The notes: generated by a model from the sequence alone, not told the origin. A stretch of 64,000 nucleotides of DNA from Aeromicrobium tamlense (GCF_013408555.1 NZ_JACBZN010000001.1:1860001-1924000), one strand, 5' to 3'; numbered from the stretch's first letter, positions 5,224 to 14,882 are shown. Made by a program: numbers and translations.

Positions 5224-6369
5224 TTACTCGGCGGCGGCGAGCTGGCCGCAGGCGCCGTCGATGTCGGAGCCGCGGGTGTCGCGGACCGTGGTGGGGATGC
5301 CCTTGGCCTCGAGGCGGCGGACGAACTCGCGCTCGTCCTCGCGGCGCGAGGCGGTCCACATCGAGCCGGGCGTCGGGTTCAACGGGATGAGGTTGACGTG
5401 CACCCAGCCCCAGTCGCCGTACGAGTTGAGCACATCGCCCAGCAGGTCGGCGCGCCATGCCTGGTCGTTGATGTCGCGCATCATCGCGTACTCGATCGAG
5501 ACGCGGCGCTTCGTGGTCTTCGCGTAGTTCCACGCGGCCTCGACCGTCTCGGCGACGCTGGAGCGGTTGTTGATCGGCACCAGCTCGTTGCGCAGCTCGT
5601 CGTCGGGCGCGTGCAGGCTGAGCGCGAGGGTGACCGGGATGCCCTCCTCCGCGAGCTGGCGCATGCGCGGGACGAGGCCGACGGTGGAGACCGTGATGTT
5701 GCGGGCGCTCATGCCGAGGCCGTCGGGCGCGGGCGCCACCATGCGACGGACGGCACCGATGACGGCCTTGTAGTTGGCCATCGGCTCGCCCATGCCCATG
5801 AACACGACGTTCGAGAGGCGGCCCGGGCCGCCGGGGATCGCGCCGGACTCCATCTGGTGCGCGGCGTCGACGACCTGGTCGATGATCTCCGCGGTGCTCA
5901 TGTTGCGCTGCAGGCCGCCCTGGCCGGTGGCGCAGAACGGGCACGCCATGCCACAGCCGGCCTGGCTGGAGACGCAGATAGTGGCGCGGTCGGGGTAGCG
6001 CATCAGCACCGACTCGACGAGCGCGTTGTCGAACAGGCGCCACAGCGTCTTGCGAGTGGTGCCCTTGTCGGCCTCGAGCACGCGGACCTGCGACAGCAGC
6101 TGCGGCAGCAGGGCGCCGACGATCGCGTCGCGCTCCTTCGCCGGGAGGTCGGTCATGTGCTCGGGATCGCGCTCGTGGCGGGCGAAGTAGTGGTGCGCCA
6201 CCTGCTTGACCCGGAACGGCTTGAGGCCGAGCTCCTCGGCGGCGGCCTTGCGCTCGTCGCCCGAGAGGTCGGCGAGGTGCCGCGGGGGCTTGCCCCGTCC
6301 ACGCGCCGGTGCCATCACGAGAGGCAACGGCTTGGGATTCACGTCCGCAACGTTCACCTCGTTCGCCAT
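5224..6369 (-). CDS. rlmN: 23S rRNA (adenine2503-C2)-methyltransferase / tRNA A37 methyltransferase
   Basis: A 381-residue radical-SAM enzyme. The 4Fe-4S cluster motif CxxxCxxC is at Cys139, Cys143 and Cys146 ([14 protein letters not shown]), followed by family motifs [24 protein letters not shown] and [10 protein letters not shown]-terminal Cys in [12 protein letters not shown] matches the second, methyl-carrying cysteine. RlmN methylates C2 of A2503 in the peptidyl-transferase centre and A37 of some tRNAs. ATG at 6369 was chosen; an in-frame upstream start would add nine unrelated residues. It ends the frr-cdsA-led operon but is separated from cdsA by a three-gene cassette. Confidence 0.97.
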
Positions 6370-6422
6370 GTCCCCAGTGTCCCAGACGGCGCCCACCGGG
6401 AACGAATCCGCGCGAGGACGGC

Positions 6423-7415
6423 TCAGAGCGCGCGGAAGCGCGGCGACAGCGCGGCGACGAACTCGAGCTTGTCCAGCACGGGTCCGGCGATGACGAACGG
6501 GTAGAGCGGGTCCTTGCCCATCGAGCGGTTGATCTGGTTGAGGGCCACCGAGAGCGGGATCCAGACGCCCGTGACGAGGTCGCGGAACGAGCGGAACGCG
6601 CCCACGTCCACCGACGTCAGCCCGAACGACTGCGCCGTGTCGATCGTGTCGGCGATGTGCAGCACGTGCGCGAACGTCTCGGCGAAGTCCTCGAACGGGT
6701 GCATCGTGGCGTAGGCGCTGATGTAGCGATCGGTCCAGCCGGCCGGCGGGCCGTCGGCGTAGTGCCGGTCGAGGGCCTCCTGGTAGTCCGCGCGCTCGTC
6801 GCCGAAGAGATCGCGCGCGGCCTCGATGAGGTCGCCCTGAACCAGCTGGGACTCGTAGTAGTGGCCGGTCTCGTGCCGGAAGTGCCCCAGCAGCGTGCGG
6901 TAGGGCTCGTCGAGGTCACGGCGCAGCCGCTCGCGGTGCACGCTGTCGCCCTCGGCGAGGTCGATCGTGACGATGCCGTTCTGATGTCCCGTGGTCACCG
7001 GCTCGTTCGCGCTGGACAGCAGGTCGAAGGCGAGCCCGTTCTCGGGATCCTCCGCGCGCGTGACGATCGGAAGCTCCAGCGCGTCGAGCTCGACGATGAG
7101 CCGGCGCTTGGCCGACTCGGCCCCGGGGAACGCCCGCATGCCCTCGGGGTCATGGTCGTTCGGGCGGGTCCGCGTGAGCACACAGTTGAAGCACAGCGTG
7201 CCCTCGAAGCGTGTCAGCCACGTGCACGCGGCCAGCTCGCGGTTGGCGCAGCGCCACCACACGAGTCCTTCGGCATCGACGTAGCGGCCCTGCTCGTCGA
7301 CGGGGACGATCGCCCGCTCCTCGCGGGAGAACCCGAGCTCGGCACCGCACGAGACGCACGCGGTGTTCTCGAAGTACAGGGGGTTGCCGCACCGACGACA
7401 CTCGAACGCACGCAC
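6423..7415 (-). CDS. Zinc-ribbon putative metallopeptidase (Peptidase_Mx / DUF2248 type)
   Basis: A 330-residue protein. Two Cys4 zinc-ribbon-like sites occupy the N-terminus (Cys6, Cys9, Cys20, Cys23 and Cys56, Cys64, Cys75, Cys78). A putative zinc-peptidase motif follows: [10 protein letters not shown] with His181, Glu182, His185, and downstream the acidic/His segment [17 protein letters not shown] that could supply the third ligand. I recognise the overall type as the putative zinc-binding peptidase that often sits beside transglutaminase-like and alpha-E/ATP-grasp genes; no substrate is known to me. GTG at 7415 gives the family-like start [10 protein letters not shown] after GGGTGG; a GTG at 7451 would add 12 residues. 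It follows the transglutaminase gene by 57 bp and is probably the last gene of the cassette. Confidence 0.75.
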
Positions 7416-7472
7416 GGAACCACCCAACCCCGACAGCCGCGGGCGCGCCACTTCGAGCCCACAGGGCGTGGG

Positions 7473-8348
7473 TCACGCGAGCGGTGCCACGTCCACCTGG
7501 ACGTCGAGCGAGGACGAGCGCGCGTCGGTGTAGATGATGCCCTTCACCGGCGGCACGTCCTTGTAGTCGCGACCCCGGGCCACCGTGACGTAGCGGTCGT
7601 CGGCCCAGTGGTCGTTGGTGGGATCCAGCGCGAGCCAGCTGCCGTCGGGCAGCCAGACGGCGGCCCAGGCGTGCGAGGCGTCGGCCCCGACGACCCGCTC
7701 GCGCCCCGGCGGCGGCGTGGTGGCCAGGTAGCCGCTCACGTAGGCGACGGCGAGCCCGTGCGAGCGCAGGCACGAGAGCGTGAGGTGGGCGAAGTCCTGG
7801 CAGACGCCGGCGCGCTGCTCGAAGACGTCGTCGATCCTGCTGGTGACGGTGGTGGCGGTCTTGTCGTAGCGGAAGTCGGCATGGATGCGGTGCATCAGCT
7901 CGGTGACGGCCTCGCCCACCGGGCGTCCGGCCGTGAGCGACTCGGCCGCGTACGCGCGGGCCTGCTCGGTCTGGTCGACGAGGGTCGACGGGAGCGCGAA
8001 GTCCACCGCGCGCCACGCGTCGGGCACGTCGGGCCGCTCCCCCGGACGCGCCAGCTCCCACGGCGTCGCGAGGGCGTCGGCGTCGTACGTGGGCACCTGC
8101 ACCTCGACCTCGCTCGTGGCGTCGACGACGAGCGTGCGGTGCGGCTCGGTGACCTGGAAGTACGTCACCGCGTTGCCGTAGAAGTCGGTGTCTCGCGATG
8201 CGTCGCCCGGGGTCGGCTCGATCCGCACGTCGACGTCGTCCACCCGCTGCCACGACGTGGAGCGCGGGACGACGTGGGCGATGCCGTAGCTGTTCGAGAC
8301 GTCCTCGTCGTACGTGTAGGTGGTGCGGTGCCAGACCCGGTACCTCAT
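7473..8348 (-). CDS. Bacterial transglutaminase-like cysteine protease/amidase
   Basis: This 291-residue protein has an N-terminal Bact_transglu_N beta domain (residues 1 to about 80, RYRVWHRTTYTYDEDVSNSY) and a transglutaminase core with the catalytic triad visible: Cys183 in RAGVCQDFAHL, His226 in ADASHAWAAVW and Asp242 in LALDPTND. No signal peptide, so it is probably cytosolic. The family performs cysteine-protease or amide-exchange chemistry. The gene overlaps the preceding ATP-grasp/alpha-E gene by 4 bp (ATGA), a close coupling seen in many bacteria, and it likely acts on the product of that ligase. Confidence 0.9.
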   Translation of the reverse strand: MRYRVWHRTTYTYDEDVSNSYGIAHVVPRSTSWQRVDDVDVRIEPTPGDASRDTDFYGNAVTYFQVTEPHRTLVVDATSEVEVQVPTYDADALATPWELARPGERPDVPDAWRAVDFALPSTLVDQTEQARAYAAESLTAGRPVGEAVTELMHRIHADFRYDKTATTVTSRIDDVFEQRAGVCQDFAHLTLSCLRSHGLAVAYVSGYLATTPPPGRERVVGADASHAWAAVWLPDGSWLALDPTNDHWADDRYVTVARGRDYKDVPPVKGIIYTDARSSSLDVQVDVAPLA

Positions 8349-10816
8349 GCGCCACCTCCCGCCGACAGCGCCAACGCCCGCGGCGTGGGCGCGGCCGCGA
8401 AGTGCACCTCGGCTACCGCGTCGGACAGACGCATCAGCTGCTGCCCGGTGGCCTGCGCGAACCGCACGAAGTTCGGCCGGCTCTCACGCTCGATCGACAT
8501 GAGCGCCGCGACGTCGAGACGCTCGAGCTCCTCGAGCAGGTCGTCCACGAGCCGCTCAGGACGGCTCGCGCCGCTGGAGCCCGGCAGGGTCGCGAGCGAG
8601 GCGTCGATGGCGCGCAGGTTGAAGGCGAGCGACCGGGGATTCGTCTCGTCGAGGAGCAGCAGGTCGAGCACCGAGGCGCCACGGACCACCCCGCGGTGAC
8701 GCCGTCGGTGCGTGATCGCGCTCTCGGCCGCCTGCAGCACCGCCAGGTGCACGTCGCGATCGACGTCGATCCCGCGCCGCACCGACAGGGTGGGGCCGAC
8801 GAGGTGGCACAGCTGGAGGCTGCGCTCGATGCCGCGCCCGATCTCCATGAGGTGCCAGCCCACGTCGCGCACCATGTTGCCCGTGACGCCGTGCAGGGCG
8901 AGCACGTCGGTGAGCATGCGGCCCGCGCTCTCGCCGATCTGCCAGCCGTGCGGGTTGGCCGCCAGCGCGCCGCGGGCGCGGTCCATCGCGCCGAACACGC
9001 GGAAGAGGTCGGGCGAGACCTGGTCGCGGATGCTCTGGGCGATCTCCTTGAGGCGTGCCACGGTCTGGGCCACGGAGCCGGGGCGCCGGGTGTCGAGCAG
9101 CAGCGACCGCAGGTCGCCCTCGAAGTCCTGCGCGTCGAACGGCGACGGGCTGAGCGAGCGCAGGACCTGCGCGACGACGGACAGGGTGCGGCCGCCACTG
9201 GAGTGCGCGCGCCCCTGGAAGTCCTCGGCGAGCTCGTGCGTGACGATCGCGAGCCGCAGCAGGTCCTCGACGCGCTCGGCGTAGCGGCCCAGCCAGAACA
9301 GGTCGTCGAGGACGCGCGGCACCGGCGTGACGGGAGCCCGCACGTGGGCGACCTGCAGCGAGTCGAGCAGTCCCTGGTCGGGCTCGTCCGGCGACTCCTT
9401 GAGCACCCAGACGTCCTTGCTGACGCCGACCTCGTCGGACTCGGTGCCCACGGGTGCCGCCGTGGCGAGACCGCCGATCATCGGGCGGTAGCTGGAGCCG
9501 TGCCGCAGCGTGAACGCGCGCAGGGTGAGCGCGTGCGGCTGCAGGCGGCCGCGGTCGAGCGTGGGCGAGACCGACACGGCCGCGCGCTCCTGGCCCACGT
9601 AGCGGTACGGCTCGGCGAGGAGCGCGGTGACGAGCTGCTCGCGCGTCAGCGCCTCGGGCACGAAGGGCGGATCGATCCGGCGGACCACGAGCTCGTCGAG
9701 CCGGTCGAGCACCTGGTCGCGTCCCTCGGGGGTGCCGGCCCAGACCGTGGGCACGTTGGAGAGCCGCAGCGGCTCGTCCAGCAGGCGCTCGCACATCGCG
9801 GACATGAACGGCAGCAGGGCCGCGTTCTCCAGCACACCGGAGCCGAGCCCGTTGACGACCGTCACGGTTCCGCGCCGAACCGCCTCCGTGAGGCCCGTGA
9901 CACCCAGCTGCGACTCGCCGCGCAGCTCGAGCGGGTCGCTCCACTCGGCGTCCACACGACGCAGGATCACGTCGACCTGCTCCAGCCGGCCGAGGACGCG
10001 CATCCAGATCGCGCCGTCGCGCGCGACGAGGTCGCTGCCCTCCACGAGCGGGAAGCCGAGCGTGGTGGCGAGGAACGCCTGGTCGTAGGCCGTCTCGGAC
10101 GTGGGACCGGGCGAGAGCACCACGACCCGCGGGTGCTCTCGCCCGTCGGGCGCCACCTGCGTCAGCGCCACGCGCAGCGCCTGGAAGAAGGGGGCGAGCC
10201 GGTGCAGGCCGGCCTCGCGGTAGGCGACGGGCAGCACGCGCGACAGGACACGGCGGTTCTCCATCGCGAAGCCGATCCCGGACGGCGCCTGCGTGCGGTC
10301 GGCGATGACCTGCCACTCCCCCGACGGCGTGCGCCCGAGGTCGGTGCCCGTGACGACGAGCTGGCGGCGGTGGTCGGCGCTGGCCCGCGCCACCACGCGC
10401 AGGAAGCCGCTGTGACCGAACACGATGCTCGCGGGCAGCGTGCCGCTCGAGAGCAGCTCCTGCGGGCCGTAGAGGTCGCGCGAGATCGCGTTCAGCAGCT
10501 CGGCGCGCTGTGCCAGGCCCTTCTCCAGGACCGACCACTCCTCGGGCGCGATGACGAGCGGCACGGGGTCGAGTCGCCACGCCTGCTGGTCGGCGCCCGG
10601 GGGCGTGTAGACCACGCCCTCGTCGGCGAGCAGCCGCGCGATCTCGTCGCCCACCCGGTTGAGCTCGGGCAGGGTCAGGTCGACGGCCTCGGCGGCGAGC
10701 CGCTTCCACGACGTGCGCAGCGTGCCGTCGGGGCTGGCCACCTCGTCGTAGAGGGCGGCCGTCTGACCCAGCGCCGGCTGGATCACCGAGGCGGCGTAGT
10801 CACGCAGGACGGTCAT
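8345..10816 (-). CDS. Circularly permuted ATP-grasp ligase fused to alpha-E domain
   Basis: An 823-residue fusion. Residues 1 to about 490 are a circularly permuted ATP-grasp (segments QQAWRLDPVPLVIAPEEW, SGTLPASIVFGHSGFLRVVA, VVLSPGPTSETAYDQAFLA, VVNGLGSGVLENAALLPFM). From about residue 499 (RVLDDLFWLGRYAERVEDLL) to the end lies the helical alpha-E domain. In many bacteria these are two adjacent proteins. ATP-grasp enzymes make amide or peptide bonds through acyl-phosphates; comparative genomics has placed this family in a predicted peptide or peptide-tag synthesis system with transglutaminases. Here the next two genes are a transglutaminase and a metallopeptidase. The gene begins 3 bp after cdsA, so it is likely transcribed with the frr-cdsA operon. 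Confidence 0.9.
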   Translation of the reverse strand: MTVLRDYAASVIQPALGQTAALYDEVASPDGTLRTSWKRLAAEAVDLTLPELNRVGDEIARLLADEGVVYTPPGADQQAWRLDPVPLVIAPEEWSVLEKGLAQRAELLNAISRDLYGPQELLSSGTLPASIVFGHSGFLRVVARASADHRRQLVVTGTDLGRTPSGEWQVIADRTQAPSGIGFAMENRRVLSRVLPVAYREAGLHRLAPFFQALRVALTQVAPDGREHPRVVVLSPGPTSETAYDQAFLATTLGFPLVEGSDLVARDGAIWMRVLGRLEQVDVILRRVDAEWSDPLELRGESQLGVTGLTEAVRRGTVTVVNGLGSGVLENAALLPFMSAMCERLLDEPLRLSNVPTVWAGTPEGRDQVLDRLDELVVRRIDPPFVPEALTREQLVTALLAEPYRYVGQERAAVSVSPTLDRGRLQPHALTLRAFTLRHGSSYRPMIGGLATAAPVGTESDEVGVSKDVWVLKESPDEPDQGLLDSLQVAHVRAPVTPVPRVLDDLFWLGRYAERVEDLLRLAIVTHELAEDFQGRAHSSGGRTLSVVAQVLRSLSPSPFDAQDFEGDLRSLLLDTRRPGSVAQTVARLKEIAQSIRDQVSPDLFRVFGAMDRARGALAANPHGWQIGESAGRMLTDVLALHGVTGNMVRDVGWHLMEIGRGIERSLQLCHLVGPTLSVRRGIDVDRDVHLAVLQAAESAITHRRRHRGVVRGASVLDLLLLDETNPRSLAFNLRAIDASLATLPGSSGASRPERLVDDLLEELERLDVAALMSIERESRPNFVRFAQATGQQLMRLSDAVAEVHFAAAPTPRALALSAGGGA

Positions 10817-10819
10817 GGG

Positions 10820-11668
10820 TCAGACCAGCAGGTACATCACCAGGTACGCGACGGGCGCGACGGCGATGAGCGAGTCGAGCCGGTCCATCAGTCCACCGTG
10901 GCCGGGCAGCAGGTCGCCCATGTCCTTGATGCCGAGGTCGCGCTTGATGAGCGACTCGCACAGGTCGCCGAGAGTGGCGAAGCAGACTCCGGCGACGCCG
11001 AGCAGCAGGCCGGCCCACCACGGGCCCTCGAGCGCGTAGACGACCACGAGGATGCCGCACGCGATGCCTGCGAGCAGCGAGCCGGCGAAGCCCTCCCAGG
11101 ACTTCTTCGGCGAGATCGTCGGCGCCATCGGGTGCTTGCCGAACAGGACGCCCGCGGCGTAGCCGCCGATGTCGGAGGCGATCGTCACCAGGATGAACGC
11201 CACGACGCGCCACGGGCCGTCGTCGGCGGCGAGCATGCGCATGACGAACGTGCCCATGAGGAACAGGTAGGACAGCAGGAAGACGCCCGCCGTCGCGTCG
11301 CGGACGAAGCCGTCGCTGCCCGAGCGCAGCCGCCAGGCCATCGTCGCGATGACGGTGAGCGCCATGACCGCCGCGGCGGTGTCCATGTCGTCGTAGAACG
11401 CCACCACGAGCATGGCGACGCCGCCCACGAGCACCGGCGGCAGCGGCACCCGGATGCCGGCCGTGCCGAGCGCACGGGCGATCTCGAGCGCCGCCACGAC
11501 GAGCGCGACAGCGGCGACGACGCCGAACAGATCCTTGACCCAGAACAGGGACAGCAGGACCAGGGCGACCAGGCTGACGCCGACCGTGATGGCCGCGCGC
11601 AGGTCGCGGCCGGCCCTCCCGGTCTTCTTGGCGGCGGCCGAGTCGGGAGTCGGGCCCTCAGACGTCAA
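10820..11668 (-). CDS. cdsA: Phosphatidate cytidylyltransferase (CDP-diacylglycerol synthase)
   Basis: A 282-residue membrane enzyme with about seven hydrophobic segments. It carries the complete CDP-DAG synthase signature near residues 239-265, SLIKRDLGIKDMGDLLPGHG followed by GLMDRLD. It converts phosphatidate plus CTP to CDP-diacylglycerol, the precursor of cardiolipin, phosphatidylglycerol and phosphatidylinositol. The apparent start is a TTG at 11668 that overlaps the frr end by 11 bp; no better ATG or GTG is near. The hydrophilic N-terminal ~22 residues are variable in the family. Order frr-cdsA is conserved in Actinobacteria; rlmN normally follows but is displaced here. Confidence 0.96.
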   Translation of the reverse strand: MTSEGPTPDSAAAKKTGRAGRDLRAAITVGVSLVALVLLSLFWVKDLFGVVAAVALVVAALEIARALGTAGIRVPLPPVLVGGVAMLVVAFYDDMDTAAAVMALTVIATMAWRLRSGSDGFVRDATAGVFLLSYLFLMGTFVMRMLAADDGPWRVVAFILVTIASDIGGYAAGVLFGKHPMAPTISPKKSWEGFAGSLLAGIACGILVVVYALEGPWWAGLLLGVAGVCFATLGDLCESLIKRDLGIKDMGDLLPGHGGLMDRLDSLIAVAPVAYLVMYLLV

Positions 11669-12215
11669 GGAGCTCTGCCTCTTTGGCCTTCAGCGCGTCG
11701 TCGATCTCGTCGACGTGCTTCTTCGTCAGACCGTCGAGACGCTTCTCCGCCCCGGTGTTGTCGTCCTTGCTGATCTCGGAGTCCTTCTCGGCCTTGTCGA
11801 GCGCCTGCTTGGCGCTGCGACGCACGCCGCGCACGGCGATGCGGCCGTCCTCGGCCTTGGAGCGCGCGAGCTTGATGTACTCCTTGCGGCGCTCCTCGGT
11901 GAGCTCGGGCAGCGTCACGCGCAGCACCTTGCCGTCGTCGGACGGGTTGACGCCGAGGTCGGAGTCGCGGATGGCCTTCTCGATGGCCGACTTCGCGCCG
12001 AGGTCGTAGGGGGCGATGATGACGGTGCGCGCCTCGGGCACCTGGAAGCCCGCCAGCTGCTGCAGCGGTGTGGGCGTGCCGTAGTAGTCGGCGGTGATCT
12101 GGGCGAACATCGCCGGGTGGGCGCGTCCGGTCCGGATGGCCTCGAACTCGTCGCGAGTGTGCTCGACCGCCTTCTTCATCCGGGTCTCGGCATCGCGCAG
12201 TGTCTCGTCGATCAC
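11658..12215 (-). CDS. frr: Ribosome recycling factor
   Basis: RRF splits post-termination ribosomes together with EF-G. GTG at 12215 gives a 185-residue protein, exactly the usual length, starting with the family-typical IDETLRDAETRMKKAVEHTR and containing IRTGRAHPAMF, VTLPELTEERRKEYIKLARS and a C-terminal LTKKHVDEIDDALKAKEAEL helix. A GGAG six bases upstream supports this start over a GTG at 12248 that would add 11 residues and whose GAGG is too close. It lies 36 bp after pyrH and overlaps cdsA at its end. Confidence 0.96.
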   Translation of the reverse strand: MIDETLRDAETRMKKAVEHTRDEFEAIRTGRAHPAMFAQITADYYGTPTPLQQLAGFQVPEARTVIIAPYDLGAKSAIEKAIRDSDLGVNPSDDGKVLRVTLPELTEERRKEYIKLARSKAEDGRIAVRGVRRSAKQALDKAEKDSEISKDDNTGAEKRLDGLTKKHVDEIDDALKAKEAELLDV

Positions 12216-12251
12216 GTCATGCTCCGTTGCATCGTCGGGGGTGTCCACGCC

Positions 12252-12956
12252 TCAGGCGTGGACGAGTGTTCCGATCATCTCACCACGCAGGGCGCGGGCG
12301 ACCGCGCCCTCGTCGTTCATGTTGAACACCATCATGGGCAGTTCGTTCTCCATGCACAGCGCGAACGCGGCCGCGTCGACGACCTGGAGGTTGCGCTGGA
12401 GGGCTTCGTTGAAGGTCAGGCTGTCGAAGCGCTGGGCCTCGGGGTTGCGGCGCGGGTCGGAGTCGTAGACCCCGTCGACGCCGTTCTTGCTCATCAGCAC
12501 GACGTCGGCCTTGATCTCCAGCGCGCGCTGGGCCGAGACCGTGTCCGTGGAGAAGTACGGCATGCCGGCGCCGGCGCCGAAGATCACGACGCGGCCCTTC
12601 TCCATGTGGCGGATGGCGCGGCGCGGGATGTAGGGCTCGGCCACCTGGGCCATCGCGATGGCGGACTGCACGCGCGTCTCGACGCCCTGCTTCTCGATGA
12701 AGTCCTGCAGCGCGAGCGCGTTCATGACGGTGCCCAGCATGCCGATGTAGTCGGCGCGGGCACGCTCCATGCCCCGCTGGCTGAGCTCGGCCCCGCGGAA
12801 GAAGTTGCCGCCACCGACGACGATCGCGACCTGCACGCCGTCACGGACGGCGGCGGCGACCTGGGCGGCCGCGTCGTTGACGACGTCGGGGTCGATGCCG
12901 ATCGCACCTCCTCCGAAGACCTCACCGGAGAGCTTGAGGAGTACGCGGCGAGCCAT
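12252..12956 (-). CDS. pyrH: UMP kinase
   Basis: A 234-residue amino-acid-kinase-fold enzyme that phosphorylates UMP to UDP. N-terminal [16 protein letters not shown] carries the phosphate-binding Lys; [10 protein letters not shown] is the UMP/nucleotide loop; [15 protein letters not shown] and [15 protein letters not shown] are the conserved base- and ATP-site segments. ATG at 12956 is the natural start; longer in-frame extensions read into non-conserved sequence. It follows tsf after a strong hairpin and precedes frr, the standard rpsB-tsf-pyrH-frr order. Confidence 0.97.
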
Positions 12957-13040
12957 GGGTACGAGATTATCCGATGACCGGCCCCGGAGCGCAGCCGACA
13001 TGGGCATCGGGCGAGGGCTGTGACGCGCGCCGCAGACGCA

Positions 13041-13074
13041 CGAGGGCCCCGCGGATCGCTCCGCGGGGCCCTCG
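13041..13074 (-). terminator. Strong hairpin after tsf
   Basis: A perfect 14-bp GC-rich stem, cgagggccccgcgg (13041-13054) and ccgcggggccctcg (13061-13074), with a 6-nt loop. It sits 16 bp past the tsf stop and about 85 bp before pyrH. No U tract follows, as is common for actinobacterial terminators. It probably separates rpsB-tsf transcripts from the pyrH-frr-cdsA unit. Confidence 0.85.
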
Positions 13075-13090
13075 ACGATCGTGGTGCGAC

Positions 13091-13906
13091 TCAGGCGCCG
13101 ACCTCGATGTGGCTGAAGCCCTTGACGGTGATGCCGGCCTCGTCGGCGACGGCCTTCACGGTCTTCTTGTTGTCGGTGACGCTGGACTGCTCCAGGAGGA
13201 CGTTCTCCTTGAAGAAGCCGTTGACGCGACCCTCGACGATCTTGGGCAGGGCCTGCTCGGGCTTGCCCTCCTCCTTGGCCGTGGCCTCGGCGATCTCGCG
13301 CTCCTTGGCGACGAGGTCGGCGGGGACGTCCTCGCGGGTCAGCCAGCGCGGGCGCATGGCCGCGATCTGCATCGCGACACCGCGGGCGGCGTCGACGTTG
13401 TCGCCCTCGTACTCGACGAGCACGCCGACGGCCGGCGGCAGGTCGCTGGCGCGACGGTGCATGTAGGTGGCGACCTGACCCGAGAGGGCGCTGACGCGAC
13501 CGAGCTCGAGCTTCTCGCCGATGACGGCGGCGAGGGCGCTGATCGTCTCGGCGACGGTCTTGCCGTCGTCGAGGGTGACCTGCGCGAACTCCTCGGCGTT
13601 CGCCGGCTTGGCGGCGTCGGCCGCGGTGGCCAGGCGCTCGGCCAGCGCGATGAACTGGTCGTTCTTCGCGACGAAGTCGGTCTCGGAGTTGAGCTCGACC
13701 AGGGCCGAGCCGGCGTTGGCGACGAGGCCCGAGGAGGCCTCGCGCTCGGCACCGCGCTTGGCGGCCTTGGCCGCGCCCGAGATCCGCAGGACCTCGACGG
13801 CCTTGTCGAAGTCGCCGTCAGCCTCGGTGAGGGCCTTCTTGGCGTCCATCATGCCCGCGCCCGTGGCGTCGCGGAGCTTCTTCACATCGGCAGCAGTGAT
13901 TGCCAT
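13091..13906 (-). CDS. tsf: Elongation factor Ts
   Basis: This 271-residue guanine-nucleotide exchange factor recycles EF-Tu. The N-terminal UBA-like module [20 protein letters not shown] is followed by [12 protein letters not shown], and the EF-Tu-contacting motif TDFVAKN is at residues 76-82. Core domains and the C-terminal segment ([17 protein letters not shown]) are complete and the length is normal for Actinobacteria. It follows rpsB at a 67-bp distance with an intergenic hairpin. Confidence 0.98.
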
Positions 13907-13927
13907 GTTCAACCTCGGTTCTGGTGG

Positions 13928-13958
13928 TGCCGGCCCGACGGATCGCGTCGGGCCGGCA
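13928..13958 (-). terminator. Hairpin between rpsB and tsf
   Basis: A 13-bp perfect stem, tgccggcccgacg (13928-13940) and cgtcgggccggca (13946-13958), with a 5-nt loop, in the 67-bp rpsB-tsf spacer. It may act as an attenuator that sets the ratio of S2 to EF-Ts, or as a stabilising mRNA 3' end. No U tract. Confidence 0.7.
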
Positions 13959-13973
13959 GATGGTCGGAGTGAC

Positions 13974-14882
13974 TCAGGACTCGGCGGGAGCCTCGGCCGC
14001 GTCGGCGGCGGGCGCCTCGGCGGTCTCGGCGGCCGGCGCGTCGGCGGCGGGGGCCTCGGCGGCGGGCGCCTCAGCAGCAGCGGCCTCGGCGGGCTGCTCG
14101 GCCTTCGAGGCGAGCAGCTCCTTCTCCCAGTCGGCCATGGGCTCCTCGGCACCGAGCTCCTGGCCCGGGGCCTCCTCGCCCGTCTTGGCGCCACCGCGCG
14201 ACATGAGGCCGTCGGCGACCGCGTCGGCGATGACGCGGGTCAGCAGGCCCACCGAGCGGATGGCGTCGTCGTTGCCCGGGATCGGGTAGTCGACGTCGTC
14301 CGGGTCGCAGTTGGTGTCCAGGATCGCGACGATCGGGATGTTGAGCTTCTTGGCCTCGTCGACCGCGAGGTGCTCCTTCTTGGTGTCGACGATCCACACG
14401 GCATTGGGCACGCGGCCCATGTCGCGGATGCCGCCGAGGGTGCGGTTGAGCTTGGTGTACTCGCGACGCATCTGAAGGAGTTCCTTCTTCGTGCGGTTCG
14501 AGCCCGCCACGTCGTCGAAGTCGATCTCCTCGAGCTCCTTCATGCGCTGGAGGCGCGCGGACATCGTGGAGTAGTTGGTGAGCATGCCGCCGAGCCAACG
14601 CTGGTTGACGTAGGGCATGCCGACGCGCTTGGCCTGCTCCTCGACGGGCTCCTGCGCCTGGCGCTTCGTGCCGACGAACAGGATCGTGCCGCCGCGGGCG
14701 ACGGTGCTCTTGACGAACTCGTACGCGGAGTCGATGTACGACAGCGACTGCTGGAGGTCGATGATGTAGATGCCGTTGCGCTCGGTCATGATGAATCGCT
14801 TCATCTTGGGGTTCCAGCGACGGGTCTGGTGCCCGAAGTGAACGCCGCTCTCGAGCAGCTGACGCATGGTGACGACGGCCAT
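13974..14882 (-). CDS. rpsB: Small ribosomal subunit protein uS2 with Ala/Glu/Pro-rich tail
   Basis: A 302-residue protein. The S2 core ([62 protein letters not shown]-like segment with [19 protein letters not shown]) is complete by about residue 225. It is followed by an acidic linker and a low-complexity tail of about 40 residues repeating [10 protein letters not shown] units. Such tails occur in other Actinobacteria and are probably disordered. ATG at 14882 follows AGGAAG. It heads the rpsB-tsf operon. Confidence 0.97.

What the first reader, a model, noticed from the sequence alone, without database searches (positions are those of the whole stretch)
6423..10816. Three-gene cassette: CP-ATP-grasp/alpha-E fusion, transglutaminase, zinc-ribbon metallopeptidase
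Seen: an 823-residue fusion of a circularly permuted ATP-grasp and an alpha-E domain, 4-bp coupled to a transglutaminase with an intact Cys/His/Asp triad, then a two-ribbon HETGH protein. Known: comparative genomics has predicted that such gene sets make a peptide or modify proteins with peptides, but the product is uncharacterised as far as I know. Inference: the ligase builds an amide-linked product, the transglutaminase transfers or cuts it, and the metallopeptidase recycles it. The fusion and the added metallopeptidase with zinc ribbons give a compact version. It begins 3 bp after cdsA, so it is expressed with lipid and translation genes.
Basis: partly seen in the sequence, partly recalled or inferred. 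Interest (0 to 1): 0.75.

Follow-up and report, generated by a model that had tools for sequence, protein, structure and literature searches.

The report
Dead-ligase fusion in peptide-processing cassette
The three genes are real and form a reduced version of a widespread but uncharacterised bacterial peptide-modification operon; the predicted 'ligase' has lost its ATP- and metal-binding residues in every relative checked, and it almost always coexists with an intact copy elsewhere in the genome.

Summary
In detail: an 823-aa CP-ATP-grasp/alpha-E fusion, a transglutaminase-like protein with an intact C183/H226/D242 triad, and a two-ribbon HETGH metallopeptidase, in tight tandem after cdsA. Aligned to the nearest solved relative (3n6x), the fusion has lost the E-x-N metal motif and the glycine-rich ATP loop. 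All 101 fusions of this type in the first set and all 24 in the second (including Serratia, Thalassobaculum, Pareuzebyella) lack E-x-N; 80/80 and 14/14 stand-alone paralogues keep it. It is under purifying selection: a conserved pseudo-ligase. It occurs almost only with an intact stand-alone ligase in the same genome (15/15, 44/44, 38/39); the two loci were lost together three times in the genus. The peptidase is no addition: the fuller operon is DUF2126 amidoligase, fusion, transglutaminase, peptidase; this clade has lost DUF2126. Best reading: the non-ATP 'processing arm' of a two-locus peptide-modification system, the ATP-dependent step being done in trans. The product remains unknown.

The parts
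8345..10816 (-). Fusion protein: pseudo CP-ATP-grasp domain (aa 86-452) plus alpha-E domain (aa 500-806), 823 aa
   Evidence: fold match 3n6x Z 36.7
10277..10303 (-). Position of the E-x-N metal motif: reads A172-D173-R174...PSG instead of E-D-N..PSG
   Evidence: alignment to 3n6x and to 80 intact stand-alone paralogues
9647..9691 (-). Place where the glycine-rich ATP loop should be (K-P-x-x-x-(S/A)-G-G-x-G); here LVVRRIDPPFVPEAL, loop deleted
8399..9319 (-). Alpha-E domain with both ER-type motifs (GRYAERVEDLLR 9254-9289; GRGIERS 8819-8839) intact
   Evidence: Pfam Alpha-E E=2e-58; invariant R511, R515, E517, R521, G660, E664, R665 in 43 fusions
7473..8348 (-). Transglutaminase-like thiol enzyme, triad C183 (within 7791-7808), H226 (within 7665-7676), D242 (within 7614-7628)
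   Evidence: C/H/D in 116 of 116 sequences of this type
6423..7451 (-). Peptidase_Mx with two zinc ribbons; probable true start GTG at 7415; HETGH at 6861-6875, third ligand E258 within 6666-6683
   Evidence: (8 Cys, HExGH, E258 conserved in 22 sequences)
10820..11668 (-). cdsA, upstream neighbour; in relatives the DUF2126 amidoligase gene lies between it and the fusion
5224..6396 (-). RlmN-like radical SAM gene, downstream boundary conserved in the genus

Best explanation
The cassette is the non-ATP, 'processing' arm of a two-locus peptide-modification system. SHOWN by sequence: the fused ATP-grasp domain lacks the metal ligands and ATP loop needed for canonical ligation, is conserved in that state, and occurs with an intact stand-alone CP-ATP-grasp/alpha-E/transglutaminase-like locus in the same genome. 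INFERRED: the intact ligase (here at G000:C1:3.038 Mb) makes an amide-linked peptide or peptide adduct in an ATP-dependent step; the pseudo-ligase keeps conserved residues away from the ATP site (PSG, RR-D, KD-W, Q) and its alpha-E domain, binds that substrate or docks its carrier, and presents it to the Cys/His/Asp transglutaminase-like enzyme, which hydrolyses or transacylates it; the zinc-ribbon metallopeptidase trims or recycles the peptide. In this Aeromicrobium clade the second ligase (DUF2126) has been lost and the transglutaminase-like protein of the other locus has lost its catalytic Cys, so the system's one intact ligase and its one intact transglutaminase lie in different loci. Confidence: about 0.95 that the fusion is not a canonical ATP-grasp ligase; about 0.75 that the two loci work in one pathway; about 0.4 for the adaptor/processing role.
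For: Motif loss against 3n6x; E and N of ExN absent in 101/101 fusions and in 24/24 more, kept in 80/80 and 14/14 stand-alone paralogues. In four further genomes the fusion has lost the C-terminal ATP-binding half. Purifying selection, dN/dS 0.16 against 0.155 for cdsA. Same fold as 3n6x and glutathione synthetases. Fusion with an intact ligase in the same genome: 15/15, 44/44, and 38/39 in the genus (the exception an 83%-complete genome); within 12 kb of it in 24 of 44; three joint losses in the genus. Transglutaminase triad intact in 116/116. Own-genome stand-alone locus: intact ligase motifs, Cys-to-Thr in its transglutaminase-like protein. DUF2126 absent from the whole genome.
Against: No substrate, product or complex has been shown. 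In the related Yersinia system no specific interaction between operon proteins was found by pull-down with Anbu as bait (PMC6376114). A pseudo-ATP-grasp could have another chemistry. The residues kept in the fusion may be structural only. Genus-level coupling rests on three joint losses. Co-occurrence p-values ignore shared ancestry.
Confidence: 0.5

Rival explanations
1. One reading: the fusion is an active ATP-dependent ligase that builds the amide-linked product within a self-contained cassette.
For: Strong Pfam and fold match to ATP-grasp ligases; the Yersinia Anbu-operon ATP-grasp releases phosphate from ATP (PMC6376114).
Against: Metal ligands and glycine loop absent in every window-type fusion, ATP lysine absent in most; four relatives lack the ATP half. 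The active Yersinia protein is the stand-alone type (separate ATP-grasp and alphaE genes).
Confidence: 0.03
2. The pseudo-ligase is a regulatory or scaffolding subunit of an ATP-dependent ligase (the stand-alone paralogue in trans, or DUF2126 where present), so the cassette takes part in synthesis rather than processing.
For: Dependence on the stand-alone ligase; DUF2126 lies next to it in most loci.
Against: DUF2126 changed state six times on the genus tree and is absent from 17 genomes that keep the fusion and its transglutaminase, so it is not the essential partner. The two loci are far apart on the chromosome here.
Confidence: 0.27
3. The fused domain has acquired a different catalytic activity (as some pseudokinases have), using its own conserved set of residues.
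For: Its replacement residues are themselves conserved: Q in place of R in 97/101, GSGxLE(N/S) in place of GxGxADDK.
Against: No candidate metal or nucleotide site was recognised; truncated forms still persist.
Confidence: 0.12
4. The cassette is a decaying remnant after loss of the DUF2126 ligase.
For: DUF2126 lost here and the other transglutaminase-like protein lost its Cys.
Against: dN/dS 0.13-0.20 across the cassette; active-site residues of the transglutaminase-like protein and peptidase intact; motif loss long predates DUF2126 loss, being shared with other phyla; the Cys-less protein is no less constrained than Cys-bearing ones.
Confidence: 0.03

Closest known systems
CP-ATP-grasp / alpha-E / transglutaminase / Anbu operon (predicted by Iyer et al. 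2009, as described in PMC6376114 and PMC5666114)
   Same: Same three families; function predicted to be peptide synthesis or tagging; no product known.
   Different: No Anbu here: the only proteasome-fold hits in the genome are one adjacent pair, consistent with a 20S proteasome. ATP-grasp fused to alpha-E and catalytically degenerate.
DUF2126 (transglutaminase plus GCS-like ligase) operon of actinobacteria, e.g. the family of M. tuberculosis Rv2566 (PMC2588565)
   Same: Mycobacterium, Nocardia, Nocardioides and Microbacterium loci hold DUF2126, fusion, transglutaminase and Peptidase_Mx together; this is the fuller form of the window cassette.
   Different: The window's genome has lost DUF2126.
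Rv2569c, reported as an E-cadherin-cleaving serine protease (PMC11081392)
   Same: Described there as a YebA-superfamily protein with a predicted Cys protease domain; by gene order the probable counterpart of the window transglutaminase (Rv gene order from memory, orthology not tested).
   Different: The window family keeps a Cys nucleophile in 116/116, which fits a thiol rather than a serine enzyme; the biochemical claim was not tested here.
3n6x, Methylobacillus stand-alone CP-ATP-grasp
   Same: Fold, Z 36.7 over 431 residues, 32% identity.
   Different: Keeps ExN, glycine loop and NSSxGGG; no alpha-E domain.
NtrC-dependent DUF404/407 - DUF403 - transglutaminase - large transglutaminase cluster of Burkholderia (PMC5491218)
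   Same: Same families; shows that such clusters can be nitrogen-regulated.
   Different: ATP-grasp and alpha-E are separate genes; no nitrogen control has been shown for the window cassette, which follows cdsA.

Membership tests
CP_ATPgrasp_2 (Pfam PF14403), by descent | Profile and fold match | tested here: met
   E=3e-125; 3n6x Z 36.7
Active ATP-grasp ligase | E-x-N metal ligands, ATP-phosphate lysine and glycine-rich loop | tested here: not met
   A-D-R; loop deleted; against 3n6x, against 94 intact paralogues. Role of Glu, Lys and G-loop in related glutathione synthetases: PMC2845819; the ExN assignment is family knowledge.
Alpha-E (PF04168) | Helical domain with conserved ER motif | tested here: met
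   E=2e-58; motif invariant in 43 fusions
Bacterial transglutaminase-like enzyme | Bact_transglu_N plus core domain and Cys/His/Asp triad | tested here: met
Bacterial transglutaminase-like enzyme | Acyl-transfer rather than hydrolysis | not testable with these tools
   needs an enzyme assay with the natural substrate
Peptidase_Mx (PF15887) zinc peptidase | HExxH plus downstream Glu, and Cys ribbons | tested here: met
   conserved in 22 sequences; zinc-peptidase-type fold, best Z about 9, fold similarity only
Anbu-type operon | Anbu NTN-hydrolase gene in the operon | tested here: not met
   not in the locus; only a tandem proteasome-family pair elsewhere in the genome
DUF2126-type operon | DUF2126 amidoligase next to the fusion | tested here: not met
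   absent from the genome, present beside the fusion in 22 of 49 genomes of the genus: a derived, reduced relative

The most novel reading that the evidence does not exclude
Across at least three bacterial phyla this peptide-modification system is built from a matched pair, an intact CP-ATP-grasp ligase and a conserved pseudo-ligase/alpha-E fusion that depends on it and directs a thiol transacylase or hydrolase to the ligase's product: a write-and-process cycle governed by a pseudoenzyme, present in mycobacteria too.
Probability: 0.35. Interest if true: 0.75.

Novelty: new variant of a known kind. Interest (0 to 1): 0.5.

Why it matters
These gene clusters are widespread (mycobacteria, Nocardia, Pseudomonadota) yet have no known product. 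Knowing that one of the two CP-ATP-grasp copies is dead in a conserved way, and nearly always accompanied by a live one, turns a vague 'peptide-tagging' prediction into specific experiments: the ATP-dependent step should map to the stand-alone gene, and the fusion should act as a binder or adaptor. Aeromicrobium species that have reduced the system to one live ligase and one live transglutaminase are simpler test organisms.

Tried and rejected
Active fused ligase: rejected on motifs. Complementary degeneration of the two loci as a general rule: rejected; the Cys loss in the stand-alone transglutaminase-like protein is one event in one clade of nine genomes, all lacking DUF2126, and cannot be tested statistically; nor is that protein less constrained there. 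'Alpha-E fusion always means dead ligase': rejected; L022 and L023 hold a different fusion with a partial alpha-E domain and intact motifs. Single-sequence search of the peptidase against solved chains found nothing. NCBIfam gave no hits. A profile of stand-alone ligases reached, by sequence, only 3n6x, so residues could not be mapped by sequence onto a ligand-bound structure. A consensus scan of 6000-14500 found no sigma-70-type promoter. The founding paper (Iyer 2009) is not held, so whether it noted the inactivation is unknown. Literature on Rv2409c-2411c: none found.

Full report
Observation. The three minus-strand ORFs are present as described, with the domains named, a 4-bp overlap between the first two and a 3-bp gap after cdsA. 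The transglutaminase-like triad is C183/H226/D242 and the peptidase has HETGH at 193-197. The peptidase start is probably the GTG at 7415: orthologues begin there and residues 1-13 are disordered in the model (mean pLDDT 90.3).

The ligase domain is degenerate. phmmer against solved structures gives 3n6x at 2e-61; in that alignment LEDNLRTPSGVSY of 3n6x faces IADRTQAPSGIGF and the GSGGYG loop faces a deletion. In ATP-grasp enzymes E-x-N coordinates magnesium (family knowledge); in the related glutathione synthetases Glu146 (yeast numbering), two lysines and the G-loop serve metal and phosphate binding (PMC2845819). A survey of motif columns over 101 fusions and 80 stand-alone paralogues shows E, N and R of ExNxR, the loop glycines and ADDK conserved in all stand-alone copies. 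In the fusions E and N are lost in 101/101 (in one the Glu is Asp) and the rest in nearly all, while PSG, both Arg and the Asp of RRxD, the Asp of KDxW and the Arg of ENR are retained in all, and the AQ Gln in 96 of 101 (a few loci are duplicated between collections). Twenty-four fusions in a second set, from Serratia, Thalassobaculum, Pareuzebyella, a Solirubrobacteraceae genome already in the first set, and 20 genomes of the phylum of Serratia, show the same loss, against 14 intact stand-alone copies. In four genomes the fusion keeps only the first ~270 of 374 profile positions. A tree without the motif columns puts the full-length fusions on one side of a branch (support 93; one fusion, L237, carried the wrong label in the script), so one origin is plausible; the truncated ones fall elsewhere on a long branch.

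It is not decay. dN/dS among six close relatives is 0.16 for the dead ATP-grasp half, 0.13 for its alpha-E half, 0.17 for the transglutaminase-like gene and 0.20 for the peptidase, against 0.155 for cdsA. The predicted fold matches 3n6x with Z 36.7 over 431 residues and glutathione synthetases with Z 20-25; model mean pLDDT 86.6.

It needs a living partner. The genome has a second, stand-alone locus at G000:C1:3.038 Mb (L003) with intact ligase, alpha-E and transglutaminase-like genes. In 246 genomes of the phylum all 15 with the fusion also have the stand-alone ligase (39 have it; Fisher 7e-14); in 150 genomes of the phylum of Serratia 44 of 44 do (84 have it; 9e-15) and 24 of these 44 pairs lie within 12 kb. 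In these two samples most copies were classed by length and score, and motifs were read in those fetched. The p-values ignore shared ancestry. In the genus 38 of 39 do, the exception being 83% complete. Five well-assembled congeners have lost both loci, at three places on the tree, leaving frr-cdsA-rlmN without the cassette; one (G290) lost the fusion and its transglutaminase-like gene but kept the stand-alone ligase and the peptidase; no well-assembled genome lost the ligase alone. So the fusion appears to depend on the ligase, not the reverse.

The peptidase is a regular member, and a ligase is missing. In 80 loci retrieved by the peptidase profile (the best of at least 591, so biased to close relatives), 54 hold a CP-ATP-grasp, 56 a transglutaminase-like gene and 46 the DUF2126 transglutaminase-amidoligase in the fetched flanks (up to 10 kb); 23 hold the peptidase alone. 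In the phylum sample 16 of 16 genomes with the peptidase have the stand-alone ligase and 13 have the fusion. In the genus the order is frr-cdsA-[DUF2126]-fusion-transglutaminase-[peptidase]-rlmN. DUF2126 is absent from the window genome and from 17 of 39 fusion-bearing genomes of the genus, with six changes of state on the tree. The genus is Aeromicrobium: contigs of G266 and G279 match named Aeromicrobium records in length and content.

A second oddity. In the clade of nine genomes that includes the window, the transglutaminase-like protein of the stand-alone locus has Thr or Val for the catalytic Cys, a single event, yet it is as constrained as its Cys-bearing relatives (dN/dS 0.24 against 0.18-0.41). 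All cassette-linked transglutaminase-like proteins keep C/H/D.

Mechanism. What is shown is that the cassette lacks the residues for known ATP-grasp amide-bond chemistry, and that it travels with a gene that has them. What is inferred is that the pseudo-ligase/alpha-E binds the substrate, product or carrier of that ligase and hands it to the thiol enzyme and the peptidase. A regulatory role in synthesis is the main rival. Literature gives only context: in Yersinia pull-downs with Anbu as bait found no specific partner, but the ATP-grasp protein did release phosphate from ATP (PMC6376114); related clusters belong to the NtrC regulon of Burkholderia (PMC5491218) and correlate with urea metabolism in marine metagenomes (PMC3597751). 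Nitrogen control of the window cassette is untested. Rv2566 is the DUF2126-type protein of M. tuberculosis (PMC2588565); Rv2569c has been described as a serine protease (PMC11081392), which sits uneasily with an invariant Cys triad if it is indeed the orthologue (not tested).

Novelty. The kind of system was predicted in 2009; that paper is not held, so I cannot say whether the inactivation was noted there. The pseudo-ligase rule across phyla, its dependence on a living paralogue, and the DUF2126-less reduced form are the new points as far as the held literature shows.

Noticed in passing
L003:4280-5236 (G000:C1 about 3.036 Mb): The transglutaminase-like protein of the stand-alone locus has Cys replaced by Thr (GVTHDITH) yet stays under purifying selection: a second pseudoenzyme of the same system in this genome.
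   Followed up: yes
L016, L017, L018, L019: Four genomes of one family carry a fusion in which most of the C-terminal ATP-binding half of the ATP-grasp is missing, beside an intact stand-alone copy.
   Followed up: partly
L022, L023: A different, probably independent fusion of an intact-motif CP-ATP-grasp to a partial alpha-E domain, next to a transglutaminase-like gene.
   Followed up: no
L139 (G290): Peptidase_Mx alone between cdsA and rlmN, without the fusion and transglutaminase-like gene, so the peptidase can be kept without them.
   Followed up: no
L003:10155-13941: Near the stand-alone locus lie genes whose translations look like a FemAB-type transferase, an alanine-racemase-like protein and a penicillin-binding protein (read by eye, no domain scan); whether this links the system to the cell wall was not tested.
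   Followed up: no
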